Assembly: GCF_004137765.1 (NCBI RefSeq)
Contig: NZ_NOIS01000005.1
Span: 62,001 to 126,000 of the forward strand
Direction of reading: 5' to 3'
Source of the DNA: Rothia uropygialis
GTDB taxonomy: Bacteria > Actinomycetota > Actinomycetes > Actinomycetales > Micrococcaceae
Length of the DNA stretch: 64,000 bases
The position numbers were made by a program, and so were the translations under genes. The notes under the pieces are model-generated. The model was not told where the DNA came from, did not search any database, and was given only the letters and a program-made list of their open reading frames with translations. Of this stretch, positions 1 to 21,552 are shown piece by piece (position 1 is the stretch's first letter; each line of letters begins with the position of its first letter).

Positions 1-605
1 GGTTCAGGACTCTGCCTGACCACGACGACGCCGGCGTCGACCTCGCCCGAGTACCCACCGACCTCGACGAGAACGGGTGGCACGAGCCCTTCCGCGCGCA
101 GGTCTCCCGCGTACCGGCGGTACAAGTCGAGGTAGTCGAAGTCTTCGGCCCCTTGACACACCACGTGCGCGGCGGCGTCGGTCTTCCGGGCGAACTGGTA
201 CATATCCATCGCGCGATGTTTGGGCAGAGTGAAGACGGGTACGACTCCCAGGAGAAAACAACCGCACATATAGGCCATGTACTCGGCCGTGTTCGGTAGT
301 TGCAGCAGGACGCGGTCCCCCGGGACCGCTCCGGCATCCGCCAGCACCCGGGCGGCACGTCGGGCTTCCTCCTCCAGCTGGGCATAGGTCCAGGTCACGG
401 TGGCGAGACTGCTCGCGTCGGAGGTTCGGGCGCTGTGGGCGACCACTGCGGTCCGTTCCGAGAATTCACGGCAGCGGGCCAGGATGAATTCCTGGAGATT
501 TTCATCGATCCAGTAACCCGCATCGCGGTACTTTTGGGCGAATTCTTCCGGAATGCCGGGGAATTCGGCCAGTGGGCTTCGACCGTGGCCCATTAGGGAC
601 GTCAT
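1..605 (-). CDS. entE: 2,3-dihydroxybenzoate-AMP ligase EntE/DhbE, N-terminal part (cut by window edge)
   Basis: The frame is open from an ATG at 605 to the window edge, giving about 201 residues. The start has an AAGAAG ribosome site 7 nt upstream; a second in-frame ATG lies at 593. The protein begins like EntE/DhbE: an N-terminal FAQKYRDAGYW segment, then TWTYAQLEEEARRAA, GDRVLLQLPN and the VFTLPKHR stretch typical of aryl-acid adenylating enzymes. Family members activate 2,3-dihydroxybenzoate with ATP and load it onto an aryl carrier protein. The adenylation core motifs lie beyond the edge. It is the last visible gene of the leftward siderophore operon, 66 nt after the ATPase gene. Identity is firm because of the EntA, EntB and EntC homologues nearby. 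Confidence 0.88.
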   Translation of the reverse strand, partial: MTSLMGHGRSPLAEFPGIPEEFAQKYRDAGYWIDENLQEFILARCREFSERTAVVAHSARTSDASSLATVTWTYAQLEEEARRAARVLADAGAVPGDRVLLQLPNTAEYMAYMCGCFLLGVVPVFTLPKHRAMDMYQFARKTDAAAHVVCQGAEDFDYLDLYRRYAGDLRAEGLVPPVLVEVGGYSGEVDAGVVVVRQSPE

Positions 606-671
606 CTACGTGCTTCTTTCATGTTGAAGGGACTGGATTCGGCGAATCGCCCGTCCGCTCGCCGTGCGGAA

Positions 672-1538
672 TCAATCGTGTGCCGGGACGAGAACCGGAG
701 CGCCTGTCTGCGGGTGGTCCATCAGGTAAACCTTCTGGCCGTAGACCTCTTCGACGCGTTCGGGAGTCAGCACATCGGGAGGCGAACCGTCTGCGACAAG
801 TCGGCTGCGGGAGAACATGAGAACCCGGTCCGCATACCTAGCGGCTTGGTTCAGGTCGTGCAGAACCACGACCAGGGCGGTGCCTTGGTCCGCAAGGCTC
901 CTGGCGGACCGGAGAAGAGACTCCTGATTTTGGAGGTCCATCGCGGCGGTCGGTTCGTCCAAGAGCATGATCGGGGTGGTTTGGGTGACGGTTCGGGCAT
1001 ACGCTACTCGCGCGGATTCGCCCCCAGAAAGAGTCGTGACGTCGCGACGGCGCAGACGCACCAGATCCGAGCCGTCCAACGCGTCCTCGACAATCTGGCG
1101 GTCACGCTGATCGTCGACGTCGTGTGGCAGACGCCCCATTGTCACCGCTTCTTCCACGCTGAACCCGAAGTGCGTGGTCTGCTGCTGAAGCATCACGGAA
1201 CGCCGGCGGGCAAGCTCCAATGCGTGCCATTGCCTGGGGGTGCGGCCGCCGAGAAGGATCTTTCCGCGGCTGGGTTCGAAGTCTCCTGCGAGCAGACCCA
1301 ACATCGTGGATTTGCCGGCACCGTTGGGTCCCACGAGCGCCGTGAGCGTCCCGGAACGGAGACTGAAGGTGACGTCGTCAATCAGGGTTTTGCCGCCGAT
1401 CGTGTAACCGGCGCTGGTCACGTCGATGACCCCGAATTCGGTATTGCCTCCCGTGGTCGAGGAGTCCGCGGGGTGCTTCGAAGCTGCTTCGGGCGCTCGG
1501 TTGGTTTGCCTCCGTGACGAGCGGTCCTTGCGGATCAT
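672..1538 (-). CDS. FecCD-type iron-chelate ABC importer, ATP-binding protein
   Basis: 288 residues, starting at an ATG that overlaps the permease stop (ATGA) with an AGGAGG site upstream. A longer in-frame extension exists but overlaps the permease and is not used. It shows Walker A (GPNGAGKST), a Q-loop region, the signature LSGGESAR, Walker B (IMLLDEPTAAMD) and an H-loop (VVLHDLNQ). It resembles FecE/FepC/HmuV ATPases that drive uptake of ferric siderophores or haem across the cytoplasmic membrane. The first 40 residues are a charged, low-complexity tail before the domain. The siderophore neighbours favour a ferric-catecholate substrate; haem cannot be excluded from sequence alone. Confidence 0.93.
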   Translation of the reverse strand: MIRKDRSSRRQTNRAPEAASKHPADSSTTGGNTEFGVIDVTSAGYTIGGKTLIDDVTFSLRSGTLTALVGPNGAGKSTMLGLLAGDFEPSRGKILLGGRTPRQWHALELARRRSVMLQQQTTHFGFSVEEAVTMGRLPHDVDDQRDRQIVEDALDGSDLVRLRRRDVTTLSGGESARVAYARTVTQTTPIMLLDEPTAAMDLQNQESLLRSARSLADQGTALVVVLHDLNQAARYADRVLMFSRSRLVADGSPPDVLTPERVEEVYGQKVYLMDHPQTGAPVLVPAHD

Positions 1539-2593
1539 GAGATCCTCCTTTTCTCCCGCAGGATCAGGAACAGGAAGAAGGGCGCACCCACCGCGGCCGT
1601 GAACAAACCAATGGGTATTTCGGTCGGCGGGTTCAGGGTGCGCGAGGCGGCATCGGCGGCCACGACCAATACGGCTCCGGCGATAGCCGAGGCCGGCAGC
1701 AGGGCTTTGTGTCCCGGGCCGACAATGAAACGCATGATGTGAGGGACGACGAGCCCGACGAAACCGATGGACCCGGCGAACGCGACGGCGGCCGCGGTCA
1801 ACAGTGCCGTGGTCACGATCACCACGAATCGACTGACCTTGACGTTGAGGCCCAAGTGCTGAGCTTGCCGCTCGCCAAGGGTCAGTACATCGAGAGTCTT
1901 GGACAAGCGAAGGACCAGGAGCATGCCGACAAGAAAAATCGGCGCAACACCGGCCAGCTGTGCCCAATTGGCCCGTCCCAACGAACCCATTTGCCAGAAG
2001 ACCAGGGTCTGAAGCTGCGAATCATCGGCAATATAGGTGAAGAATCCGACCAGGGCCTGACAGGCTGAACCAACCGCGATTCCGACGAGGAGCATCCTCG
2101 CCGTACCCGTGGTCCGGCCTGGTCTGGCCAAGAGGTAGATCAGCGCCGTAACGGCCAGGCCGGCGGCGAATGCGCCCAGGGGAACGACCCACTGGGTTGC
2201 GAACCCACCGGCCAGAACGATCGCGCCGACCGCGCCGACGGACGCCCCGCTGGTGACCCCGACGATGCCGGGGTCGGCCAGCGGATTGTTGAAGAGGCTC
2301 TGAAGGCATGCACCCGATATGGCCAGCGCGGCACCAACCATCACCCCGAGGAGAATGCGGGGAACCCGCAACTGCCACACCACAGAAACATCACGCTGGT
2401 TCAGCGACTCGTCGCCACCGAGAAGGGGTGCCGAGAGGATGTGCCACACATCGACGAGCATGACCCGCACAGGTCCGATCGAGACTGAGAGGACCATGAG
2501 GGCGAGCAGGAGCACAACCCCAAGGGTCAACGTCGCGGAGAGAGGAAGGCGACGGATCTCCTCGCCGTGCGAATTTCTGCGTGTTGTCGGCAT
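1535..2593 (-). CDS. FecCD-family iron-chelate ABC transporter permease
   Basis: 352 residues with about ten hydrophobic segments. The family hallmarks are present: RVPRILLGVMVGAALAISG near residue 77, the NNPLADPGIVGVTSGAS stretch, and GFVGLVVPHIMRFIVGPGH before the last helices. Only one permease gene is present, so it presumably works as a homodimer, as in BtuC-type importers. It starts 6 nt after the lipoprotein stop and its own stop overlaps the ATPase start, so the three genes should be translationally coupled. Role: transmembrane channel for re-import of ferric siderophore. Confidence 0.94.
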   Translation of the reverse strand: MPTTRRNSHGEEIRRLPLSATLTLGVVLLLALMVLSVSIGPVRVMLVDVWHILSAPLLGGDESLNQRDVSVVWQLRVPRILLGVMVGAALAISGACLQSLFNNPLADPGIVGVTSGASVGAVGAIVLAGGFATQWVVPLGAFAAGLAVTALIYLLARPGRTTGTARMLLVGIAVGSACQALVGFFTYIADDSQLQTLVFWQMGSLGRANWAQLAGVAPIFLVGMLLVLRLSKTLDVLTLGERQAQHLGLNVKVSRFVVIVTTALLTAAAVAFAGSIGFVGLVVPHIMRFIVGPGHKALLPASAIAGAVLVVAADAASRTLNPPTEIPIGLFTAAVGAPFFLFLILREKRRIS

Positions 2594-2599
2594 TCAGTC

Positions 2600-3769
2600 T
2601 CAGAACTCCGAAATTGCCTTGGCGAGCGCTTCCGCCCCGGCGCCCAGTTCAGGGCTCGAGTAGCGAACCTGGGCGTCCGGCATGACCACGATTCGCCCTT
2701 CCTTACCGGCTTTGGTCTCCTTGAGGGTCGGGAATGCTTCCCACAATCCGTCTTCTCCTCCCCAAGCCTCGTAGTCCGATTCGGCCAGTACGATCACGTC
2801 CGGATCGGAAGCCAGGATCCCCTCGTTGCTGAATTCACGGGACAGGCCGCGCAGCCCGCTCTCGGCCCCCACGGATTTCATGCCGAGGCTTTCGATCATC
2901 TCGGTTCCGGGTGTTCCTGTACCCGCAACCGAGTTCTGGCCACCGGCCCCGTTGGAGGTGACCTGAATCACTTTGTGGTCCTGGAGGTTGGAGTCCTTGA
3001 CCTTCTTCTTGGCCTTGTCCATATCCGCGTTCAAGGAGTCCACGAGCTTCACGCCGGCATCGTGAGCGCCCACGTAGTCGGCCACTGCCTGAAGTTTGTC
3101 CGCCTGGGTGGTTTGGTCGTCCACCACGACGGCGTCGGTCCCGGCGTCACGGAACTGCTGTGCAACGTCACCGTGCCGTTTGGTGTTGTCCCCAATGAAC
3201 AAGGTTCCGTCCAGGGCCAGAAGTCCTTCGGTTCCGGTCTGCTTGCTGAACTCGAAGTGCTCCGGGGCATCCTTTCCGGCGGGCGAGGTGCTGTTGTTGG
3301 GGGCGGCGTAGATTTTGTCCTGGAGCCCGAGGGCCGCCAAAGTCGACGAAATGCCGTCTCCTGCCGAGATGATCTTGGACGCGTCCTTGACCGTGACCTC
3401 GGTCCCGGTTCCGTCCTTGACCGTGGTGGGCAGGTGGGGATCGGCCTTGATGTCCTCGAAGTCGGTTGTGCCGACCGCGTACTTCCAGCCGGAGGGCAGC
3501 TTGAGGTCCTGTCCACTGCCGGACGATGAGGACTCCGAGCTAGAGCTGGCCTGGTCCCCTTCGGAGGCGGTAGTGGCCGCGTCGCCGCAACCGGCCAGAA
3601 CCAGTGCCCCGATGCTCAGTGCGGCGACCGCGCCCGCCGCGCGCAGGCCTGCCCTGGCGTGGCGGGAGCGTCTTGTGTCGTTGCTTCCGTCCGAGGGACG
3701 GTACGCCCGTTCGCTCTCCTCGACAGCTACGGTCGTCGATTCGATTCGGTTCTCATGATGCGGTGACAT
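2600..3769 (-). CDS. Iron-chelate ABC transporter substrate-binding lipoprotein
   Basis: 389 residues from an ATG at 3769 with a GAAGAGGA site upstream. A longer frame to 3880 would overlap the exporter gene, so I reject it. After a charged N-terminus there is a hydrophobic stretch ending in the lipobox LVLAGC (Cys about residue 61), then a Ser/Glu-rich linker and a helical-backbone solute-binding domain. The pattern DAGTDAVVVDDQTTQADKL, then IESLGMKSVG and ILASDPDVIVLAE, is typical of FepB/FhuD/HmuT-like proteins. It should sit on the outer face of the membrane, capture the loaded siderophore and deliver it to the permease. The unusually long cytoplasmic N-terminus is odd and may mean the true start is not yet resolved. 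Confidence 0.9.
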   Translation of the reverse strand: MSPHHENRIESTTVAVEESERAYRPSDGSNDTRRSRHARAGLRAAGAVAALSIGALVLAGCGDAATTASEGDQASSSSESSSSGSGQDLKLPSGWKYAVGTTDFEDIKADPHLPTTVKDGTGTEVTVKDASKIISAGDGISSTLAALGLQDKIYAAPNNSTSPAGKDAPEHFEFSKQTGTEGLLALDGTLFIGDNTKRHGDVAQQFRDAGTDAVVVDDQTTQADKLQAVADYVGAHDAGVKLVDSLNADMDKAKKKVKDSNLQDHKVIQVTSNGAGGQNSVAGTGTPGTEMIESLGMKSVGAESGLRGLSREFSNEGILASDPDVIVLAESDYEAWGGEDGLWEAFPTLKETKAGKEGRIVVMPDAQVRYSSPELGAGAEALAKAISEF

Positions 3770-3815
3770 GTTTCCTCTTCTCTTCGGGCCGACGAGGCCC
3801 TTCCTTGGGGTTTCT

Positions 3816-6800
3816 TCAGCCTCGCTCGGAAGCTGCGGCTGCGGGGGCGGCGGAAGCGTTGAGCTGGCAGTACCTGCCACCCAGTCGGATCAGCTCGTCA
3901 TGGGTTCCGAATTCGACGATCCGACCGTTCTCCATGACGGCGACGCGGTCGCACCGAGCGGCCGTTGCGAGCCTGTGTGCGACGATCACGGAGGTCGCGT
4001 CCGTGGTTTCTAGCGCATCCATGACGGCCGATTGAGATGCGGCGTCGAGGTGCGCCGTGGCCTCGTCCAGGAGCAGCAGATCCGTTCCGGCGAGCTCGGC
4101 CCGGGCGAGCGCAATGAGCTGGCGATGACCCTGGGCGAGATTCGCCCCGCCGTCGTCGACGCGGTACCGAAAACCTCCGGGCAGCCGAGCAATCGCGAGG
4201 ATCGCCCCGCTGCGCCGTGCGGCCTCTTCGACCTCGGCATCCGTCGCGCCGGGCCGTGCATACCGGATGTTCTCGGCGATCGTGGTGTCGAAAAGGTGCG
4301 GCGCCTGGTCGACCACACCGACTCGCCGCCGATAGGTCTGCCGATTTAGGCCACCGCGTTCTCTGCCACCGACCCGCACTCGACCGTGGTCGGCTTGGTA
4401 GAGCCACGCCATGACCTTGACCAAAGTCGTTTTCCCGGCACCGGTGCTCCCCACCACGGCGAGGCTCGATCCTCTCTCGAGTTCAAGGTCGATGTCCTTC
4501 AGGGCCGGCTGGGAGGCACCATCGTGGGTGTAGCCGACCCCGCTCAAACGGATGTCACCCGAGAGTCGACCTGAATCCTGCGAATGCGGCTCGCCGGGAT
4601 CCACGAGGTCGTTTTCCTCTTGCGGGGTGGACAACAGTTCGTCGGTCCGCTTCTGGCCGATTCGCGCCTGCTGGTACGAATCGAAAATATTGGCCAGCTG
4701 CTGGATCGGCGCATAGAACTGTCCCAGGAACAACAAGAACGCGGCCATGATGCCGGGCGTCAGGCTGCCATCGGAGACGAAGTGCGCGCCGGCGACGAGG
4801 ACCAATGCGTTGGATACCTGGGCGCAGAACACCACGAACGGGAAGTAGAGGGCAATGTAGCGTTGTGCCTTCTCGCGGGATTTCCGGTACGTGTCGGAGA
4901 CCTTCTGGAAGAATCCGGCCGCCACGGACTGTTTTCCGTGCGATTGGACCACACGCAGACCGGAGATGTTCTCCTGCAGAGAGCTGTTGACCTTCCCGAT
5001 GTCCTCTCTCGCCTGGTCGTAGGCCTTGGTGGACAGCTTGCGGAAAATCAGGGTCGCTATGAGAACCAGCGGCATCGGGGACAAAGCAATGACGGCGAGC
5101 AACGGGTTGAAGATCAGCATGGCGACTCCGATCCCGAACATCGAGATCAGGGACATCGTCCCGTTGACCAAGCCCGTCTGCAGGAAACGTGAGAGCGAAT
5201 CGACGTCGACGGTCAGCCGGGTCATAACCTGTCCGCCCTGCTCCTTCTCGAAGTACGGAAGTGAGAATCCGAGCACGTGACGGAAGCTGCGCACACGGAC
5301 ACCGTATTGAACGGCTTCCGAGCCTTTCGAGCTGAACAGCGATTGACCGATGTAGAAGAACCAGTCCCCGGCGATCAGGACCCACGCGAGTACCGCGTAG
5401 AGGAGCAACGTCGAGTGGTCCCCTGGCGCGATCCCGAGATCGATGCCTCGTTGGATCATGAGGGGTACCAGCACGTTGACCAACGCGCTCAGGGCAATCA
5501 GGATTAGGGCCGCGCCGAAGAGGCCTTTGACGGGCTTCAACATCTGTTCGACGCGCGTGACCTTCGGATCGGCGGCCATATTCACCGCCGATTCGGGAAG
5601 GGTCGTGAGCCACGAGCCGCGTTTCGCCGAGTTGTCTTCCGGCTCATCGGTTGCCAAATCATCCTGGGTACCGTCCACGTCCTCGGCCTCGGGCCAAAGA
5701 TTCGCATCACCGGAAACTCGGTCGATGGCCTCGTGTCCACCGGCCATGAGCTCGACGAATTGCGGACAGCCCTGAAGCAGCTGTTCGCGCGTACCGACGC
5801 CCACGGTCCGGCCACGATCCAGGACGACGATCCTGTCCGCGAGGTCGAGGGTACTGCGGCGTCGGGCGATCAAGAGTGTGCAGCGGCGGGCTGAGGGATC
5901 TGCCTGACCGTCGGCGTTCGCGTAGTGCCGCAGGGTTTCGTTGATACCGCTCTCCGTGGTCGCGTCCACAGAGCTTGTGGCGTCGTCGACGATGAGCACC
6001 TTGGGCTGGGTCAGCAGGGCTCGGGCCAGGGCAATTCGTTGCCGCTGTCCGCCCGAGAGGTTCTTTCCGCCTTCGGCCAATTCGGTCTCGTACCCGCGGT
6101 CCAGACCCGCGATGAATTCGTCGGCTCCAGCCGCTCGGGCCGCGGTCCGGATGTCCTCGTCCGAACACTCATGAGTTCCGTATGCGATGTTGTCTCGCAC
6201 CGTGGCGCGGAAAAGGAACGGATCTTCAAAAACCACCCCGACGTTCCGCCGAAGTTCCTTGAGCTTCAATTCCCGGACGTCGCGGGGGCGCTCGTCCTCG
6301 GGACCGGCCGAGGCGTCCGCCGGATCGCCGATGAGCACGGAGCCACCGCTGACGTCGTAGAAGCGCGGCGCCAAAAGCGCGAGGGTTGATTTTCCGGATC
6401 CGGAGGCCCCGACGACCGCGACGGTCTCCCCGGGCCCGACGGTCAGGTTCACGTCGCGAAGAACGGGTTCGTCCGAGGTGTATCCGAAGGAAACGTTGCG
6501 CATTTCCAATCCGGCGCTCCGGGGCGGGGTTGCCTCGCCGTCCCTCATCTCGGGCTTGGCATCCGTCAGCTCAAAGATTCTTTCCGCACACGTGCGGGTC
6601 CGCTGCGCGATCACCAGAAACGAGGCCATGACGCGGGTCGGACCGGTCAGCATGCTCAAGTACGTGGAGAACGCAACAAAGGTCCCGAGGTCAAGGCGTC
6701 CCGTGGTGACCTGCCAGCCGCCGACAAGGAGCAGTGCAGCCTGCCCTGCGGGCGGAAGGGCAAGCATCGTCGCGCTGGGTGCGGCCTGGGCCCGCATGGT

Positions 6801-7541
6801 CTGCATTCGGCGGGAGAAAAGGCAACGGCCTGCCTTCTCGACCCACGTCACATGGCGGGCCTCCTGGACGAATGACTTGACGACCGAGATCCCGGACAGG
6901 GCCGAGCGAATGTTCTCGGTGATCTGCCCGACGTCGTGCTGCGCCCTGGCCGACGTCTCGAATACCCGCTTTCGTGTACGCCATGCAGTCAGACCGAGCA
7001 AAAATACGACGGACACGGCGATGAGGGTCAGACTCGGTGACAGCCAGAGCATGACCCCGATCCCGAAGACGTAGTACGAGATGACAGAGACGGGGACCGG
7101 GCACATCTGCAGCATGGACTGGACCTGTTGCAGATCGTTGTTGGTGCGCGAGACGACTTGTCCGGTCCGCAACGAATCCTGAGCAGGACCGTCGAGCCCC
7201 TGAATCGAGTCGAAGACCCGGCTCCTGAGACGGTGCTGCACGCGCAGGGAGAGCTTGCCTGCCGCGAAGCGACGCAAGTAGTCACCCAGGAAGTCGAATG
7301 CGGCAATCGCCACGAGTCCGGCCCCGAGCCACCACAGTTTGGAGACCTCCCCGTCCATGGCCCCGTTAATGCCTTCTCTCGTCAGCAGAGGACCGGCAAC
7401 GACGGCCGCGATCGTTGCGACGGAAACGATAAGAATCAGGACAACAAGGCGAGGAAATTCGCAGCAGACACGAATCAGTCGACGGAGACCACCGTCTTTT
7501 CGGAGAGCCTCGGCTCCGGTGTGAACGGTCGAAGAGATGAT
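3816..7541 (-). CDS. IroC-like fused ABC exporter (two TMD-NBD halves), unusual start
   Basis: A single chain of two ABC-exporter halves. From the first ATG (7358) it has 1180 residues, but the same frame runs back to the TAG at 7544. Those 61 upstream codons encode a basic N-terminus and a clear first membrane helix (about 7395-7448), so the real protein probably starts upstream. No ATG, GTG or TTG lies in that stretch; I give the full open frame. NBD1 (from the ATG): Walker A GASGSGKST near 317, signature LSGGQRQR, Walker B with Asp (VDDATSSVD) and Arg for the H-loop His. NBD2: Walker A GSTGAGKTT near 970, altered signature LAQGHRQ, intact LLLLDEATAHLD and AHR. This is one degenerate and one canonical ATP site, as in heterodimeric exporters. 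Placement after the glucosyltransferase matches IroC, the salmochelin exporter. Confidence 0.85.
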   Translation of the reverse strand: MISSTVHTGAEALRKDGGLRRLIRVCCEFPRLVVLILIVSVATIAAVVAGPLLTREGINGAMDGEVSKLWWLGAGLVAIAAFDFLGDYLRRFAAGKLSLRVQHRLRSRVFDSIQGLDGPAQDSLRTGQVVSRTNNDLQQVQSMLQMCPVPVSVISYYVFGIGVMLWLSPSLTLIAVSVVFLLGLTAWRTRKRVFETSARAQHDVGQITENIRSALSGISVVKSFVQEARHVTWVEKAGRCLFSRRMQTMRAQAAPSATMLALPPAGQAALLLVGGWQVTTGRLDLGTFVAFSTYLSMLTGPTRVMASFLVIAQRTRTCAERIFELTDAKPEMRDGEATPPRSAGLEMRNVSFGYTSDEPVLRDVNLTVGPGETVAVVGASGSGKSTLALLAPRFYDVSGGSVLIGDPADASAGPEDERPRDVRELKLKELRRNVGVVFEDPFLFRATVRDNIAYGTHECSDEDIRTAARAAGADEFIAGLDRGYETELAEGGKNLSGGQRQRIALARALLTQPKVLIVDDATSSVDATTESGINETLRHYANADGQADPSARRCTLLIARRRSTLDLADRIVVLDRGRTVGVGTREQLLQGCPQFVELMAGGHEAIDRVSGDANLWPEAEDVDGTQDDLATDEPEDNSAKRGSWLTTLPESAVNMAADPKVTRVEQMLKPVKGLFGAALILIALSALVNVLVPLMIQRGIDLGIAPGDHSTLLLYAVLAWVLIAGDWFFYIGQSLFSSKGSEAVQYGVRVRSFRHVLGFSLPYFEKEQGGQVMTRLTVDVDSLSRFLQTGLVNGTMSLISMFGIGVAMLIFNPLLAVIALSPMPLVLIATLIFRKLSTKAYDQAREDIGKVNSSLQENISGLRVVQSHGKQSVAAGFFQKVSDTYRKSREKAQRYIALYFPFVVFCAQVSNALVLVAGAHFVSDGSLTPGIMAAFLLFLGQFYAPIQQLANIFDSYQQARIGQKRTDELLSTPQEENDLVDPGEPHSQDSGRLSGDIRLSGVGYTHDGASQPALKDIDLELERGSSLAVVGSTGAGKTTLVKVMAWLYQADHGRVRVGGRERGGLNRQTYRRRVGVVDQAPHLFDTTIAENIRYARPGATDAEVEEAARRSGAILAIARLPGGFRYRVDDGGANLAQGHRQLIALARAELAGTDLLLLDEATAHLDAASQSAVMDALETTDATSVIVAHRLATAARCDRVAVMENGRIVEFGTHDELIRLGGRYCQLNASAAPAAAASERG

Positions 7542-8657
7542 CTACACCCCCGCCAAGACGTCGGCCAACCGGTCGGCGATCTCGGCCGGTCCCGGCATGG
7601 CCTGGATCTCCGAGCGGACCTGATCGGCTTGTTTCTTATACGCAGGCCCGTCGACCACGGCGCGAATCGTGTCCGCGGTGAGGCCTTCCTCGTCAGGCAC
7701 GATCCCGCAGCCGCGGTCCTGAACGATTTTGGCGTTCATGGGTCGGTCGGCTCCCTCGCCGAAGACGATCTGAGGAACCCCCGCGGCCAAAGCGGTAAAG
7801 GTGTTTCCGGCTCCGCCGTGATGGATGAAGACATCGGAGTTGCTGACCAAGCCGCCCATGGGGATCCAGTCGGTCAGGACGACGTTGTCGGGGAGTTCGT
7901 CGACGAGTTCTTCGCGCGCGTTGTCCTTGAGTTGAAGGACCACTTGGGCATCGATCTCGTCAGCCCGGTGCATGACCCACTGAATCAGATCGAGTCCATC
8001 CACCATGGGCTTGAGAGTTCCAAGGCTCACCAGGACGCGAGGTTTGCTGGGACGAAGCCACCAATCCTGGAAGACAGCTCCGCCGTTGTACGGAACGTAT
8101 CGCATAGGCAGGGTTCTGTCCTTCGGGTGCGCGAGAACGCTCATGCTGGGGGGTGCGACGTCGAGCCAGGCCACGTCCTCACGCGGTTCGCCGACGCCGT
8201 GCTCCTTGAATTTCTCCCTCAATGAGCTGGTGACCGTGTCCACATGCTTCTGCTGGTGTGCAAATCCTACGGTCTGCAGAACAGTCGGTATTCCGAATCG
8301 GGCACCCAGCAGCCGGCCGACCACTCCAAGCGGCGGATAGACGATCAGGTCGGGGCGCCACTGACCCGTGAACTCGACCAATCGGTCCGTCATTTCGTGA
8401 CTGAAGAATGAGAAGTCTCCCGGCTTCGTCCCCAGATTCTGGCGTTTCCGCTCTGCTTCCCGACGTCGGTATTCGGCGTCCGGGTCGAGGCACGGGGCAG
8501 CGTCGAAGGACACGAGACCGGCTTGGACAACACGCTGTGCCATTTCACCGGCGGTTCCCACGACCACCTCGTGCCCTGCCGCCCTGAACCCCTGAGCCAG
8601 GGAAATCACGGGGTACAACAGCCCATAAAGGGGCGGACCGATCACGAGGACTCTCAT
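7542..8657 (-). CDS. iroB: IroB-like enterobactin C-glucosyltransferase
   Basis: 371 residues, ATG at 8657 with AAGGA 5 nt upstream; a TTG one codon earlier sits too close to that site. Compared from memory with enterobacterial IroB, identity is high along the whole length: VIGPPLYGLLYPVISLAQ at the N-terminus, NFSFFS-like GDFSFFSHEMTD, PPSMSVL, RYVPYNGGAV, LVSLGTLKPMVDGLDLI, DWIPMG, IHHGGAGNT and PQIVFGEGADRP. IroB is a GT1-fold enzyme (GT-B, cytoplasmic) that transfers glucose from UDP-glucose to C5 of the DHB rings of enterobactin, giving salmochelins that evade siderocalin. It is the first gene of the leftward operon, and its TAG stop is in frame with the exporter that follows. Substrate assignment is by homology and context. 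Confidence 0.9.
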   Translation of the reverse strand: MRVLVIGPPLYGLLYPVISLAQGFRAAGHEVVVGTAGEMAQRVVQAGLVSFDAAPCLDPDAEYRRREAERKRQNLGTKPGDFSFFSHEMTDRLVEFTGQWRPDLIVYPPLGVVGRLLGARFGIPTVLQTVGFAHQQKHVDTVTSSLREKFKEHGVGEPREDVAWLDVAPPSMSVLAHPKDRTLPMRYVPYNGGAVFQDWWLRPSKPRVLVSLGTLKPMVDGLDLIQWVMHRADEIDAQVVLQLKDNAREELVDELPDNVVLTDWIPMGGLVSNSDVFIHHGGAGNTFTALAAGVPQIVFGEGADRPMNAKIVQDRGCGIVPDEEGLTADTIRAVVDGPAYKKQADQVRSEIQAMPGPAEIADRLADVLAGV

Positions 8658-8702
8658 CAATATCCTTAGAATTCCGGGAGCTAAGCTTTACTGCATACGA
8701 TG

Positions 8703-8721
8703 TTTGTTGAGCCTAACCATA
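8703..8721. promoter_or_regulatory. Candidate IdeR/DmdR iron box between the divergent siderophore operons
   Basis: The 19-mer TTTGTTGAGCCTAACCATA matches 14 of 19 positions of the actinobacterial iron-box consensus TWAGGTWAGSCTWACCTWA, with the right half and centre best conserved. It overlaps a possible leftward promoter, reading on the minus strand TTGATG, 16 nt, TATGGT. A DtxR-family repressor loaded with Fe(II) binding here would shut off the iroB operon when iron is plentiful. A second, weaker AT-rich match lies near 8823-8845 over the rightward promoter. No regulator gene is in the window. Confidence 0.55.
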
Positions 8722-8811
8722 TCCGCGAGTTGTTGTCCATCAAGTCAAACAACATTTCAATCTGAGGCGTGATTCTCGCCGCGCTTCTCGTCACTCGCTT
8801 GCGCGCCGAGA

Positions 8812-8840
8812 TTGGATATGAAATAAGTTAGATTTCTATA
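8812..8840 (+). promoter_or_regulatory. Possible promoter of the esterase-entBAC operon
   Basis: TTGGAT at 8812-8817 and TCTATA at 8835-8840 are separated by 17 nt in an AT-rich patch 68 nt upstream of the esterase start. This is the best sigma-70-like match I see for the rightward siderophore operon. The call rests on motif reading only. Confidence 0.4.
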
Positions 8841-8907
8841 GCCTATTTGCGGAAGATCCCTAAGAATGCCGCAAACGACTGACAACCTTTGAGGATGCAC
8901 CCCAACG

Positions 8908-10206
8908 ATGAACTGCCGGAACCCCCCTTCGAGGATCACTTGCTTCTTAGACGAAGACGCTGTGATCCGATCCTGGGCGCACGCCGAGACCGGTGAACTT
9001 CACCAATGGTGGGAGCAGGTGGCTCGGTGGGGCACTCCGATGAACGACCCCGATTCGAACAGGGTTACTTTTCTCTGGCGGGGAGCCCACGTCCAGGACG
9101 ACCCGCAGGGAGCCGAATCCGTTCACCTCGCCATGAACCGAGTCACGGACAAGGACAACTACGACCACGGTCTGATGCGGCACGTTCCCGGAACCGATAT
9201 CTGGGTCAGGACTTTGGAGCTCGAGCCGAATTTGCGGGTCAGCTACGGCTTCAAACCCATGAAGCCCGAGGAGACCCCGCGCCCGGGCCCGCCCCGATTC
9301 AACCGATACGACACGCTTCGGGACGCCTTCAACGCCTCGGATCCTCTCGTGGATCGCGGCACCCACGGACTTTCCCTGTATTCGGGGCCGCTCTCCCCCG
9401 CCCAGCGAGAATGGGACGGACACAAGTCACGGATCGTGGAAGGCCGCATCTTCAGGAGCACGAGGACGCTGCCCGGCGACGTCGCCGAGGAAACCGCCCG
9501 CGACCACTGGCTTTATGTTCCGTCTCTGGAAGCGCCGGGAGTCGGCGGTTGCACTGTACCCTTGGTCACAATCTTCGACGCGGAGATCTGGTTCGGCAAT
9601 CTCTCGCTCCACCAGGCGATCGAAGCCGCGGTCGAGGCCGGGCGAATACCCCCGCTGGCCGTATTGGGCATCTCCAATACCGATACTCCCGATCGGATTG
9701 CCCATCTCGGCGCGAACTCGGTCTTCCTGCGCGACGTGGCGGAACATTCCATTGCTTGGGCCGAGGAGCGCGCGCGATCCGCCGGAGTGGAATTATCCGG
9801 GCGTGAAGGCCGCGTGATCGTCGGCCAAAGTCTCGGAGGTCTTTCCGCGCTCGTCGCCGCCCTCGAACTTCCCGACGTCTTCGGTCATGCCCTGGCCCAT
9901 TCGCCCTCACTGTGGTGGACCCCCGACGGGGCCTCGAAACCCCGAGATCTCGGAACCCGTGAAGGAATGGACTGGATCACCGAAAGGTTTCACCAATCCG
10001 CGTCCGGCGACGTCAGAGTCAGCGTGGCCGTCGGCGAGCGCGAGGGGCTGACCCTTCCCCGTGGCCGAATACTCCACCGGGTCATGCTCGACGCGGGTTG
10101 GGCAACAACGTTCGATACGTACGCCGGAGGGCACGATTTCGCCTGGTGGCGTGGGGCCGTCCTCGACGGTCTCAACCACACATTCATGTCTTTGCTTTCT
10201 CGGTGA
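8908..10206 (+). CDS. Enterochelin (catecholate siderophore) esterase, Fes/IroD-like
   Basis: 432 residues. An N-terminal beta-sandwich domain (WWEQVARWGTP, VTFLWRG, ending near residue 170) precedes an alpha/beta-hydrolase domain with the nucleophile elbow VGQSLGG near residue 308 and the catalytic His in GGHDFAWWR near residue 414. Both domains and the length fit Fes (about 400) and IroD (about 409). There is no signal peptide, so it should act in the cytoplasm, opening the ester backbone of imported ferric siderophore to release iron. The GAGGA site lies about 12 nt upstream of the ATG, somewhat far, so the first residues are uncertain. It leads the rightward operon and is 44 nt from entB. 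Confidence 0.9.
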   Translation: MNCRNPPSRITCFLDEDAVIRSWAHAETGELHQWWEQVARWGTPMNDPDSNRVTFLWRGAHVQDDPQGAESVHLAMNRVTDKDNYDHGLMRHVPGTDIWVRTLELEPNLRVSYGFKPMKPEETPRPGPPRFNRYDTLRDAFNASDPLVDRGTHGLSLYSGPLSPAQREWDGHKSRIVEGRIFRSTRTLPGDVAEETARDHWLYVPSLEAPGVGGCTVPLVTIFDAEIWFGNLSLHQAIEAAVEAGRIPPLAVLGISNTDTPDRIAHLGANSVFLRDVAEHSIAWAEERARSAGVELSGREGRVIVGQSLGGLSALVAALELPDVFGHALAHSPSLWWTPDGASKPRDLGTREGMDWITERFHQSASGDVRVSVAVGEREGLTLPRGRILHRVMLDAGWATTFDTYAGGHDFAWWRGAVLDGLNHTFMSLLSR

Positions 10207-10250
10207 GAAAGCAATTCCCATCATCTCGACCCCACCTGTGAGGAGACCCT

Positions 10251-10916
10251 TTGCCACTGCCCAGCATCCTGCCCTATCGCCTCGATTCCCCCATGCCCTG
10301 GCCGAACCGGACGGAGTGGCGGCTTGACCCCCAACGGGCCTTGCTCCTGATCCACGACATGCAGAACCATTTCATCGACGCATTCGATCGCTCGCCGGAT
10401 TCGCAGATCAATGCCGCGGTGAACAACACTGCGGCCCTCCGTCAGGCTTTTCACCGCGCAGAGGTTCCAGTGGTCTACACCGCCCAGCCTCCGTCCCAGG
10501 ACCCTGCCGACCGCCAGTTGCTGACGGACTTCTGGGGCCCGGGACTGACGGATGAGGAGGCGGCCCGAATCATCGACGAGCTCGCTCCCGATGCGGTAGA
10601 CACAGTTCTGACGAAGTGGCGATACAGTGCGTTCTACCGCAGCGACCTCGAACACCGGTTGCGCAATCATGGGAAGGACCAGCTGGTGATCACCGGGGTC
10701 TATTCCCACATCGGGTGCCTGGCTACCGCGTTGGAAGCGTATATGAGGGGTATCCAGGTCTTCTTCGTTGCCGATGCCCAAGCGGATTTCGACCGTGACC
10801 ACCATCAGATGGCCCTCGATTACGTCGCCGGCCGCTGCGGCCAGGTGTGCGCAACCTCGGCCCTGGTAGAAGAGTTCGGTGCTGCTTTGCGTCCACTCGA
10901 GGAGATGGCTTCGTGA
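10251..10916 (+). CDS. entB: Isochorismatase, EntB-like, lacking the aryl carrier domain
   Basis: 221 residues from a TTG start preceded by GAGGAG. The opening MPLPSILPYRL aligns with the first residues of E. coli EntB, which supports the TTG over the internal ATG at 10293. Catalytic residues are visible: Asp in LLIHDMQNHF, Lys in LTKWRYSAF and Cys in ITGVYSHIGC. The enzyme cleaves the enol ether of isochorismate to 2,3-dihydro-2,3-dihydroxybenzoate and pyruvate. E. coli EntB has about 285 residues because an aryl carrier protein is fused at the C-terminus. Here the chain stops at that boundary and no phosphopantetheine serine motif follows, so the carrier must be encoded elsewhere. Its stop overlaps the entA start (GTGA). 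Confidence 0.93.
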   Translation: MPLPSILPYRLDSPMPWPNRTEWRLDPQRALLLIHDMQNHFIDAFDRSPDSQINAAVNNTAALRQAFHRAEVPVVYTAQPPSQDPADRQLLTDFWGPGLTDEEAARIIDELAPDAVDTVLTKWRYSAFYRSDLEHRLRNHGKDQLVITGVYSHIGCLATALEAYMRGIQVFFVADAQADFDRDHHQMALDYVAGRCGQVCATSALVEEFGAALRPLEEMAS

Positions 10917-11713
10917 AAGAACTTCCTCACGCAATTGTCGTAACAGGCGGCTCGGGAGGGATCGGAGGCCAGATTGTCAGCCTGTTGAGGCGCCGCTCTG
11001 CCGATCACCGTGATGCCGTGGTCATTTCGACGGACCGTACCGGCGCGGCCACTCATGGTACCGACGAGCAGAGACATTCGGGGGTCGAGTACATCGACCT
11101 CGATGTCACGGACGCTGAGGCGGTCACGGAGGTTTTCGACGAATTGTCCTCACGGTACCGTCTTCGGTCAGTGATCAACGCTGCCGGAATCATCGCGACC
11201 GGACCGGCGCTGGAAGCCCCCGAATCGGAAGTCCGTCACATGATTGAGGTCAATGCGCTCGGTGTCGTCAACGTCAGTTCCACCGCCGCTCGCGTCATGG
11301 TCCGGCAGGCTGATCACGAGCCGGGTCAACGCCCTGAAAGATCCATCGTGACGGTCGCGTCCAACGCGGGCACCGGACCGCGTGCTGACTTCGCCGCTTA
11401 TGGTGCTAGCAAGGCCTTCGCCTCCCACTACACCCGCAGCCTCGGATTGGAGATCGGTTCGGCCGGAATCCGCTGCGTCGTCGTAAACCCGGGTACAACG
11501 CGCACTCCCATGGTGGAGTCCCTGTGGCAAGGTGCCGACCGCACGGAACAGACCGTGGCGGGCGATTCCCGTCTGTATCGGACCGGCATCCCGTTGGGGC
11601 GCATCGCCGAGCCCGCGGATATCGCTGAGGTCGTCGAGTTCTTGGTTTCGGCGAGGGCAGTTCACATCACGGCGGCGGAGCTGACCGTAGACGGAGGAGC
11701 CACCCAACGATGA
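10913..11713 (+). CDS. entA: 2,3-dihydro-2,3-dihydroxybenzoate dehydrogenase EntA (SDR)
   Basis: 266 residues from the GTG at 10913 that overlaps the entB stop. A longer frame exists but runs inside entB. It is a classical short-chain dehydrogenase: nucleotide-binding TGGSGGIGG near residue 12, NAAG near 89, and the catalytic YGASK motif. The reaction is NAD-dependent oxidation of 2,3-dihydro-2,3-dihydroxybenzoate to 2,3-dihydroxybenzoate. SDRs are functionally diverse, so the assignment rests mainly on the position between isochorismatase and isochorismate synthase, with ATGA overlap into entC. Confidence 0.9.
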   Translation: MKELPHAIVVTGGSGGIGGQIVSLLRRRSADHRDAVVISTDRTGAATHGTDEQRHSGVEYIDLDVTDAEAVTEVFDELSSRYRLRSVINAAGIIATGPALEAPESEVRHMIEVNALGVVNVSSTAARVMVRQADHEPGQRPERSIVTVASNAGTGPRADFAAYGASKAFASHYTRSLGLEIGSAGIRCVVVNPGTTRTPMVESLWQGADRTEQTVAGDSRLYRTGIPLGRIAEPADIAEVVEFLVSARAVHITAAELTVDGGATQR

Positions 11714-12867
11714 ATTCCTCTACGCTGACGGCGCATCCGGCGACAAACCCGGACCGAGCCACGGACCCCGAACCGAATTTCACGTTCTCATCAGGCCAAT
11801 GGGCACTCGAGGCATCGGGCGGTGAGATTCTGCACCCGGTGTTCGCCCACGAATCGGGTGCGGCCGGCGACCTCATGAATCGGTTGCGCGACCGAGAGCA
11901 GGCCACGAGCCGGACGCAGGTGCTCTACGGCATCATTCCCTTCGACACTTCAGAGCCGGCCGAGTTGCGGATAACTGGCGATGCAGCGTGGATTCCGCAG
12001 AAGGTGTCGAGACGTACAGTTTCGGCTCCGACAACACGGCACACCACACCGGATTCTCCGCATTACCGGAGAATCGTCTCGGAAGCCCTCGACCGGATCG
12101 AGCTCGGCGAGATGAAGAAGATCGTGCTGTCCCGTTCGATGACCTTGCCCCTTCCGGGAGAGGACCCGGAATCTGCCGAGCAACGGATCCTGGAGCGGCT
12201 CTCCGCGGCAGGAGGCAGGGCCGATATCTTTCGGATGCGGCTGAGCGACGGGGTGACATGGCTCGGTGCCAGCCCGGAAATCATTGCGGATGTCAACGAG
12301 TCCAGGTTCGTGACCCATCCCTTGGCAGGTTCCCTCGGTCGTTCACCGGACGGGCCCGAGGCCGACGAGGCCGCCCGACTTCTCGGCTCCTCGCCCAAGG
12401 ACATACACGAACACGGCTTCGTGACCCGACATATCCGCGATGCTCTCTGCCCTCTCGCGCGTGAACTCCGTGTCCCCGCCGAACCGGAGCTCTTCGGGAC
12501 GGACTCCATGTGGCATTTGGGGACCCGGATCACGGGTCTTCTGAAGCCAGGCGTTTCGGCGCTGGAGGCGGCCCTGGCCGTCCACCCGACCCCTGCCGTG
12601 GGTGGAACACCGGCGGCGCAGGCCGTCGCGGCGATTCGAGATCTCGAAGGCCAATCCAGGCGTTACTATTCCGGCTTGGTGGGATGGACCGATTCCACCG
12701 GAAACGGTCGGTGGTCCCTCGTTCTTCGGTGTGCGAGCATTCAGGAGCGGAACATTACGCTCTACGCGGGAGCCGGTATCGTCCAGGGATCCACGCCCGA
12801 GAGCGAACACGCCGAGACGGCCTCCAAGTTCGGGACAATATTGCGCACGCTGGAGGGGCTGGCCTGA
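11710..12867 (+). CDS. entC: Isochorismate synthase EntC/DhbC
   Basis: 385 residues, ATG overlapping the entA stop. It has the chorismate-binding enzyme core: a general-base Lys in MKKIVLSRSMTLPL, WLGASPEI, the HPLAGSLGRS stretch, HEHGFVTRHIRD, MWHLGTRITG, VHPTPAVGGTP and LYAGAGIVQGSTPE. Length is close to EntC (391). It converts chorismate to isochorismate, the first committed step of DHB synthesis. It is the last gene of the rightward operon and is followed by a strong terminator. The salicylate synthase alternative is less likely because isochorismatase and the dehydrogenase are co-transcribed. Confidence 0.94.
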   Translation: MNSSTLTAHPATNPDRATDPEPNFTFSSGQWALEASGGEILHPVFAHESGAAGDLMNRLRDREQATSRTQVLYGIIPFDTSEPAELRITGDAAWIPQKVSRRTVSAPTTRHTTPDSPHYRRIVSEALDRIELGEMKKIVLSRSMTLPLPGEDPESAEQRILERLSAAGGRADIFRMRLSDGVTWLGASPEIIADVNESRFVTHPLAGSLGRSPDGPEADEAARLLGSSPKDIHEHGFVTRHIRDALCPLARELRVPAEPELFGTDSMWHLGTRITGLLKPGVSALEAALAVHPTPAVGGTPAAQAVAAIRDLEGQSRRYYSGLVGWTDSTGNGRWSLVLRCASIQERNITLYAGAGIVQGSTPESEHAETASKFGTILRTLEGLA

Positions 12868-21414: not shown

Positions 21415-21552
21415 GGGTCACCTCCATTTCTTGTACTTCGCGCGGACCCGCCTCGACTCGGTCTTCGATCGAGGCCCACGGATGAATTCATCCGGAGGCC
21501 ACTACCGAGGACCGCAAGGAGAGGATGGGCCCTACGCGTATTTTTACTGAAG

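What the first reader, a model, noticed from the sequence alone, without database searches (positions are those of the whole stretch)
1..12867. Complete salmochelin-type module (IroB, IroC-like, Fes/IroD-like) with entBAC and entE in an actinobacterium
The glucosyltransferase matches enterobacterial IroB in nearly every block I can recall, the fused exporter fits IroC, and the esterase fits IroD/Fes, beside genes for DHB synthesis. C-glucosylated enterobactin is known from enterobacteria. Rothia enterobactin is known from published work, but I know of no Gram-positive salmochelin operon of this form. It could let an upper-airway commensal escape host siderocalin.
Basis: partly seen in the sequence, partly recalled or inferred. 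Interest (0 to 1): 0.8.

Follow-up and report, generated by a model that had tools for sequence, protein, structure and literature searches.

The report
Salmochelin-type siderophore cluster in Rothia
A Gram-positive bacterium of the genus Rothia carries, in one chromosomal block, genes to build the iron-scavenger enterobactin, attach sugar to it, export it, take it back up and open it; the sugar-adding part is the same kind that enterobacteria such as Klebsiella use, and it probably arose among actinobacteria.

Summary
The window lies in a Rothia genome; 1-12867 is most of an enterobactin cluster with IroB, fused exporter IroC and a Fes/IroD-type esterase. Its NRPS (EntF), a stand-alone aryl carrier protein and the rest of EntE lie just left of the window. 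IroB is a true orthologue: 57-59% identical over 98% to annotated enterobacterial IroB, inside a 100/100-supported IroB clade away from 33 other GT1 rows. IroB occurs in 4 of 35 Rothia genomes; the two that could be named come from seafood and sandalwood, so the airway-commensal story is not supported. The Fes-IroB-IroC triad also sits in 10 of 392 genomes of a Streptomyces-type genus and in one further genus. Enterobacterial IroB nests inside this actinobacterial radiation (the alternative is rejected, AU p=8e-5); IroC and IroD trees, rooted only at the midpoint, agree. So the enterobacterial module probably came from actinobacteria. Prior art: 'glycosyltransferase IroB' was annotated in a Brevibacterium catecholate cluster in 2017. 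The product is inferred, not shown. Extra find: 6 of 7 loci of a sister Streptomyces branch carry dTDP-rhamnose genes.

The parts
3..605 (-). entE (2,3-dihydroxybenzoate-AMP ligase), first 201 of 580 aa; the rest, the stand-alone aryl carrier protein and EntF lie left of the window (L006:11442-17605)
   Evidence: ORF and Pfam AMP-binding; 39.6% to E. coli EntE
672..1538 (-). FepC-like ATPase of a ferric-siderophore importer
   Evidence: NCBIfam PRK13548 above cut-off; start ATG 1538
1535..2593 (-). FecCD-family permease (single gene)
   Evidence: Pfam FecCD 2.6e-95
2600..3769 (-). siderophore-binding lipoprotein (Peripla_BP_2)
   Evidence: Pfam 1.1e-20; likely start 3769, followed by a lipobox-like LVLAGC
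3816..7541 (-). iroC, fused double ABC exporter; exact start codon unresolved (homology from about 7496, no in-frame ATG/GTG/TTG before 7358)
   Evidence: 48.5% over 1,219 aa to K. aerogenes IroC, 83% to R. koreensis
7542..8657 (-). iroB, C-glucosyltransferase, 371 aa
   Evidence: 57-59% to annotated enterobacterial IroB over 98%; IroB clade 100/100
8703..8721 (.). DtxR/IdeR-like box in the iroB-fes divergent intergenic region
   Evidence: best match in the whole window (14 of 19 to a recalled consensus) and best match of the stretch scanned in R. koreensis, G025 and G023 too; not in R. santali; the score alone is not above shuffles
8908..10206 (+). fes/iroD-type ferric-enterobactin esterase
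   Evidence: Pfam Enterochelin_N + Esterase; groups with IroD, 97/96
10251..10916 (+). entB, isochorismatase domain only
   Evidence: Pfam 1.2e-40; 50.5% to residues 1-207 of E. coli EntB
10913..11713 (+). entA, 2,3-dihydro-2,3-DHB dehydrogenase (likely start GTG 10913)
   Evidence: NCBIfam dhbA best hit 4.8e-64, below its cut-off; 37.7% to EntA; start
11710..12867 (+). entC, isochorismate synthase
   Evidence: NCBIfam isochor_syn TIGR00543 above cut-off; 36% to EntC

Best explanation
This is a self-contained salmochelin-type system. EntC, EntB and EntA make 2,3-dihydroxybenzoate; EntE loads it on the free-standing carrier protein; the one-module NRPS EntF joins it to serine and its thioesterase releases the cyclic trimer enterobactin. 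IroB adds glucose from UDP-glucose to carbon 5 of the catechol rings; IroC exports the product across the single membrane; the lipoprotein/FecCD/FepC importer brings back the iron complex; the Fes/IroD-type esterase opens the trilactone to free the iron. The glucosylation-export-esterase triad is inherited from an actinobacterial stock from which enterobacteria also got iroBCD. Shown here: gene content, orthology, phylogeny. Inferred: product, sugar, direction of export, regulation.
For: IroB 57-59% over 98% to annotated IroB, in a clade at 100/100 against 33 other GT1 rows. Donor loop GAGNT is shared by 12 of 12 rows of the glucose-type branch and is GAGTT in 8 of 8 rows of the sister branch, most of which sit beside rhamnose genes; no rfbA/B/C/D-like genes were found near Rothia iroB. 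EntF has C-A-T-TE domains, and its A-domain pocket stretch reads like E. coli serine-specific EntF. EntE 40% and EntB 50% to E. coli. IroC 48.5% full length. The triad is kept together in 4 Rothia genomes, 10 Streptomyces-type genomes and G1672. IroB/MceC chemistry (C5; IroB up to three glucoses): PMC5499518 passages. Enterobactin shown in R. mucilaginosa: PMC7190385 passages.
Against: No metabolite data. NCBIfam gave no IroB-specific hit, only GT models below cut-off. iroC has no ordinary start codon at the homologous place in the window. Antarctic Rothia with related enterobactin clusters gave no clear siderophore signal (PMC13347742). R. santali keeps IroB though its EntF is matched only in separate stretches, one with a stop, and EntE/EntBAC were not found in the 40 kb around it, so the module may have other use or be decaying there.
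Confidence: 0.8

Rival explanations
1. The enzyme glycosylates the catecholate, but with another sugar or through oxygen; the final molecule is a glycosyl-enterobactin that is not salmochelin.
For: A sister branch of the IroB family sits beside dTDP-rhamnose genes in 6 of 7 loci read plus a S. rimosus plasmid, so the family does appear to change donor.
Against: The Rothia protein is in the branch of annotated IroB, with the same GAGNT donor loop, and no rfbA/B/C/D-like genes (E<=1e-20) were found in the about 37 kb read.
Confidence: 0.1
2. The iroBC cassette came to Rothia from enterobacteria rather than the reverse.
For: In the first concatenated tree Rothia and Klebsiella are direct sisters (100/99), 89/91 with G1672 added, so one transfer either way between them fits; some Rothia have the cluster without the cassette (G023).
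Against: Enterobacteria nest inside actinobacterial IroB (AU p 8.03e-5 and 7.73e-5 against actinobacterial unity); cassette GC is close to its surroundings; the order of Rothia species in the IroB tree agrees with the PNPase tree. Even so, a path Streptomyces-type to enterobacteria to Rothia is not excluded: Rothia+G1672 as a pair is not rejected (p 0.077) but is not the best tree.
Confidence: 0.2
3. IroB serves a siderophore-peptide (microcin-like) product, as MceC does, not a free siderophore.
For: IroB-type enzymes do this in enterobacteria; Pantoea's copy sits beside MchC and a toxin-activating acyltransferase, and no iroC is annotated beside it.
Against: The genes identified in the cluster are synthesis, export, uptake and esterase genes, and iroB is next to iroC and fes in each of the 4 Rothia and 10 Streptomyces-type loci read.
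Confidence: 0.03
4. The cluster is silent or decaying and makes nothing.
For: R. santali and G827 show damage; some Rothia with enterobactin clusters gave no siderophore signal (PMC13347742).
Against: In the window's genome the frames are open, and the relative G025 keeps every cluster gene at about 90-97% identity.
Confidence: 0.07

Closest known systems
Enterobacterial iroA cluster (iroBCDEN) with chromosomal ent/fep/fes
   Same: IroB, IroC and an IroD-type esterase are orthologous; enterobactin pathway equivalent
   Different: One contiguous locus holds synthesis, tailoring, export and uptake; no IroE match and no IroN-like protein in the cluster; EntB split into isochorismatase and a separate carrier protein; one FecCD gene instead of FepD+FepG
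Rothia mucilaginosa enterobactin cluster (PMC7190385)
   Same: Genus; DHB/serine NRPS siderophore
   Different: The passages read report enterobactin; 'glycosyl' has no occurrence in the text; 31 of 35 Rothia genomes, unnamed, had no IroB at E<=1e-60
Brevibacterium linens ATCC 9174 catecholate cluster (PMC5719810)
   Same: Actinobacterial catecholate cluster annotated with glycosyltransferase IroB, DHB genes, an NRPS and one siderophore exporter (passages)
   Different: The word salmochelin does not occur there; reported as a horizontally acquired insertion; sequence not compared here
Streptomyces-type group-B loci and S. rimosus plasmid pSRP1.2 (found here)
   Same: IroB-like + IroC-like pair beside siderophore permeases
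   Different: 44-47% IroB identity, GAGTT donor loop, and a dTDP-rhamnose cassette in 6 of 7 loci plus the plasmid

Membership tests
IroB (salmochelin C-glucosyltransferase) | Closer to annotated IroB than to any other GT1 family in a rooted tree | tested here: met
   IroB clade 100/100 against 33 GT1 rows; clade of Rothia, enterobacteria and Streptomyces-type group A 100/100
IroB (salmochelin C-glucosyltransferase) | Residues shared by the branch: FSFF stretch and GAGNT donor loop | tested here: met
   Present in 4 Rothia and 4 enterobacterial rows; absent from G187 and the three other GT1 rows of the printed alignment. FSFF alone is also in group B. The acidic residue recalled as essential is conserved, but its role is recalled, not from a call
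IroB (salmochelin C-glucosyltransferase) | Transfers glucose from UDP-glucose to C5 of enterobactin catechols | not testable with these tools
   Needs an enzyme assay
IroC exporter | Single-chain double ABC exporter next to iroB, orthologous over full length | tested here: met
   48.5% over 1,219 aa; groups with Klebsiella IroC 100/99, tree rooted at the midpoint
IroD/Fes esterase | Enterochelin_N + esterase domains; IroD-type rather than E. coli Fes-type | tested here: met
   Pfam; Rothia+IroD 97/96 (with a long-branch warning for just this join); IroD with K-12 Fes rejected p 0.0038, IroD with group A p 0.038, Rothia+group A without IroD p 0.0056
Enterobactin synthesis | EntC, EntB, EntA, EntE, an aryl carrier protein and a Ser-specific C-A-T-TE NRPS | tested here: met
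   NRPS and carrier protein lie outside the window
Enterobacterial iroA cluster | Periplasmic esterase IroE | tested here: not met
   No match among the 14 proteins compared; rest of the genome not searched; expected for a Gram-positive
Enterobacterial iroA cluster | Outer-membrane receptor IroN | not tested
   No separate search; no such protein among those scanned

The most novel reading that the evidence does not exclude
Sugar-tailored enterobactin is an old actinobacterial invention with at least two sugar versions (glucose in Rothia, Streptomyces-type group A and G1672; probably L-rhamnose in group B), and the iroBCD virulence module of enterobacteria was captured from the glucose branch, from a lineage near Rothia. 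Escape from vertebrate siderocalin would then be a secondary use of a trait that evolved for competition among environmental bacteria.
Probability: 0.6. Interest if true: 0.8.

Novelty: new variant of a known kind. Interest (0 to 1): 0.64.

Why it matters
Salmochelin is known as an enterobacterial stealth siderophore. A Gram-positive lineage with the whole pathway in one locus gives a tractable system outside the enterobacteria (R. koreensis is named and its genome is held), suggests a source for a well-known virulence module, and points to a possible rhamnosyl-enterobactin family in Streptomyces. It also warns that the trait need not signal host adaptation.

Tried and rejected
Rejected: G187 (another genus of the same family), a GT at 37-41% identity, is not IroB: no fes, iroC or ent match in its 20 kb, and it falls among other GT1 rows. 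A first PNPase species tree was spoiled by taking wrong-strand ORFs and was replaced. The DtxR-box score alone is not significant: 14 or more of 19 was reached in 6 of 20 shuffles; only its repeated position is suggestive. Rfam at the gathering threshold found two tRNAs and an Actino-pnp element, nothing in the cluster. A paper on IroB chemistry was not held and a search for catalytic-residue work found none. No structure prediction was run, since the fold was not in doubt. Rows dropped from trees: G827 IroB (75-aa gap) and GT1_L112 (cut at a stop); the truncated G827 IroC (960 aa) was kept and left out; 7 of 35 genomes have no row in the PNPase tree (five had no locus returned, and I left out two incomplete genomes, G024 and G031). 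Salmonella and Escherichia IroB hits were not fetched, so enterobacteria are represented by Klebsiella (2), Enterobacter and Pantoea for IroB, and by Klebsiella alone for IroC and IroD. Beyond Actinomycetota, only the plasmid collection and one pattern scan of named genomes for close relatives were run; that scan returned R. koreensis and R. santali alone and so is blind to IroB at the 60% level.
Full report
Place and organism. The window is G000:C5:62001-126000 of a 2.96 Mb genome. Two genomes of its genus that hold IroB match named contigs: Rothia koreensis JCM 15915 (85% IroB identity) and R. santali AR01 (75%), so the genus is Rothia. No tool names the species.

Anatomy. The minus-strand arm runs iroB (7542-8657), iroC (3816-~7541), binding lipoprotein (2600-3769), FecCD permease (1535-2593), FepC ATPase (672-1538), entE (from 605 leftwards), then outside the window a 77-aa stand-alone carrier protein with an LGMDSIS motif (Pfam PP-binding 3.2e-9) and EntF of 1384 aa with C-A-T-TE domains. 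The plus-strand arm runs fes (8908-10206), entB (isochorismatase only), entA and entC to 12867. The arms diverge from a 250-bp region that holds the window's best DtxR-like site; the best site of the stretch scanned lies in the same region in G025, R. koreensis and G023, not in R. santali. The score by itself is within the range of shuffles, and the consensus is recalled.

Enzyme matches. Against E. coli K-12: EntB 50.5%, EntE 39.6%, EntA 37.7%, EntC 36.2%, EntF 29.2%, Fes 27.0%. Against K. aerogenes: IroB 59.3%, IroC 48.5%, IroD 35.4%. The carrier protein matches EntB residues 216-273 weakly (32%, E 3.7e-5). The EntF A-domain stretch reads FDVHVW, LHFVP, VCSGEAL, NLYGPTEAAID against FDVSVW, THFVP, FCSGEAL, NLYGPTEAAVD in E. 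coli, in keeping with serine (reading the pocket from these motifs is recalled practice).

IroB identity. In the plasmid collection 994 records matched. The rows listed start with enterobacterial IroB at 57-59% over 98-99%, then a Salmonella glycosyltransferase at 54%; the further GT1 rows in the spread list are 22-36%. One record in the 60-80% band was not among the rows listed. The collection also holds an IroB-like protein of S. rimosus at 44.5%. In rooted trees the IroB rows form one clade at 100/100 against 33 GT1 rows.

Distribution. At E<=1e-60, 4 of 35 Rothia genomes hold IroB, against 18 of 35 with EntF at E<=1e-100. Family sample: 4 of 295, three of them Rothia and one (G187) not a true IroB. 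Order sample: 3 of 396 (window genome, G025 and G1672). Phylum sample at E<=1e-50: 1 of 396, the window's own. A class sample gave 86 of 394 at the loose cut of 1e-20, of which the own genome and G827 (2e-97) stood far out and the next was 1.5e-55. In the genus of G827, 10 of 392 at E<=1e-75.

Context elsewhere. The 10 genomes each have Fes, IroB and IroC together; group A is G827, G1388 and G1194, group B the other seven. EntA, C, E, B and F lie in the stretch read in 3 of 10 (G827, G1388, G1380); EntF alone of the five in two more (G1097, G1085); G1245 reaches EntA near the contig end; none of the five was found in the stretches read for G1194, G1052, G1070 and G1369. G1672 has EntB, E, C, A, IroC, IroB, Fes, EntF, binding protein, permease and ATPase in one stretch.

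Within Rothia. G025 and R. koreensis have the same cluster in the same order. G023 has the cluster without iroBC, with fes and the binding-protein gene side by side. R. santali keeps Fes, IroB, IroC and the importer, while EntF is matched only in separate stretches, one with a stop, and EntE and EntBAC were not found in the 40 kb read; EntE-like genes at 46-53% lie on other contigs. On a PNPase tree of 28 of 35 genomes (gene identity checked), IroB against EntF-without-IroB needs two changes among the 13 rows counted, which fits one early gain with losses, or two gains.

Origin. IroB places enterobacteria inside the actinobacterial clade; holding the actinobacterial rows together is rejected (p-AU 8.03e-5; 7.73e-5 with G1672 added). 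The order among Rothia, group A and enterobacteria is not resolved by IroB alone (Rothia+A p 0.108; Rothia+enterobacteria p 0.267; with G1672 added, Rothia+G1672 97/90 and the rest open). IroC joins Klebsiella with Rothia at 100/99 (midpoint root). The esterase tree joins IroD with Rothia Fes at 97/96 and these with group A at 100/98 (midpoint root); the program warned that long branches meet in just that join, and the K-12 Fes branch is long. Tests on that tree reject IroD with K-12 Fes (p 0.0038), Rothia+group A without IroD (p 0.0056) and, narrowly, IroD with group A (p 0.038). The three genes together, rooted on group B as the IroB outgroup tree indicates, give Rothia+Klebsiella 100/99 and reject both alternatives (p 0.00027 and 0.00024). 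With G1672 added the Rothia+Klebsiella node falls to 89/91 inside a 100/98 group with G1672. IroB+IroC without the esterase gives 92/94; there, holding the glucose-branch actinobacteria together without Klebsiella is rejected at p 0.023, while Rothia+G1672 is not rejected (p 0.077). So nesting of enterobacteria within the actinobacterial IroB family is firm on this sample; Rothia as the very nearest kin is likely, not firm. Several rows have an unusual letter make-up, which these models do not allow for. A route through enterobacteria into Rothia is not excluded.

Sugar donor. The glucose-type branch (4 Rothia, 4 enterobacteria, 3 group A, G1672) has GAGNT in the donor loop, 12 of 12; group B and the S. 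rimosus protein have GAGTT, 8 of 8; of the other GT1 rows with a readable motif 16 have T and 4 have S there. In 6 of 7 group-B loci, and on S. rimosus plasmid pSRP1.2, four genes annotated or matching as dTDP-rhamnose synthesis (rfbA, B, D, C) sit between the exporter and the permeases; G1245 lacks them; the search found none in the Rothia, G1672, group-A or Klebsiella stretches read. This favours UDP-glucose for Rothia and suggests a rhamnosyl variant in group B. Both are inferences.

Literature. IroB and MceC place up to three (IroB) or two (MceC) glucoses on C5 of enterobactin, and salmochelins are not sequestered by lipocalin-2 (PMC5499518, passages). R. mucilaginosa makes enterobactin (PMC7190385, passages). 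Antarctic Rothia with enterobactin-like clusters gave no clear siderophore signal; the same paper mentions an enterobactin-associated cluster in bird-associated R. uropygioeca found only at a relaxed threshold, and salmochelin once, in the title of a cited work (PMC13347742, passages). IroB in a Brevibacterium catecholate cluster is in print (PMC5719810, passages); 'salmochelin-mediated iron acquisition' appears as a subsystem label in a Streptomyces genome paper (PMC13260306, passage). In my searches I saw no listed title or abstract opening that reports glucosylated enterobactin from an actinobacterium or an actinobacterial origin of iroBC; only open-licence papers are held, and only the top of each list was seen.

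Judgement. A real, complete salmochelin-type cluster in a Gram-positive; product unproven. The finding matters more for where the enterobacterial module came from than for an airway-commensal story.

Noticed in passing
L128-L133 and L156:15623-22876: Streptomyces-type group-B IroB/IroC pairs carry a dTDP-L-rhamnose cassette (6 of 7 loci, G1245 being the exception, plus S. rimosus plasmid pSRP1.2), suggesting C-rhamnosylated enterobactin.
   Followed up: partly
window 7359-7541 (-): iroC has no in-frame ATG/GTG/TTG at the homologous start in the window; the four Rothia sequences share no ordinary start codon there, and iroC follows iroB's TAG in the same frame.
   Followed up: partly
L042, L043, L152 (R. 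santali): IroB, IroC, Fes and importer kept, EntF in separate stretches with a stop, EntE and EntBAC not found beside it: possibly a former producer.
   Followed up: partly
L114:15483-16360 and L115:6-3046: G827 IroB lacks residues 24-98 in frame, and its IroC frame changes near residue 928: the module looks damaged there.
   Followed up: no
L044:555-3188 (G023): Same enterobactin cluster with iroBC absent and fes beside the binding-protein gene.
   Followed up: yes
G000:C5:187827-195710 (L007): A second NRPS with an open frame of 3557 aa in the same genome.
   Followed up: no
L010:6014-10104 (Pantoea agglomerans plasmid): IroB-type gene beside MchC and a toxin-activating acyltransferase, with no iroC annotated: looks like a siderophore-microcin locus.
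   Followed up: no
window 21457-21516 (-): Actino-pnp cis-regulatory RNA ahead of the PNPase gene.
   Followed up: no
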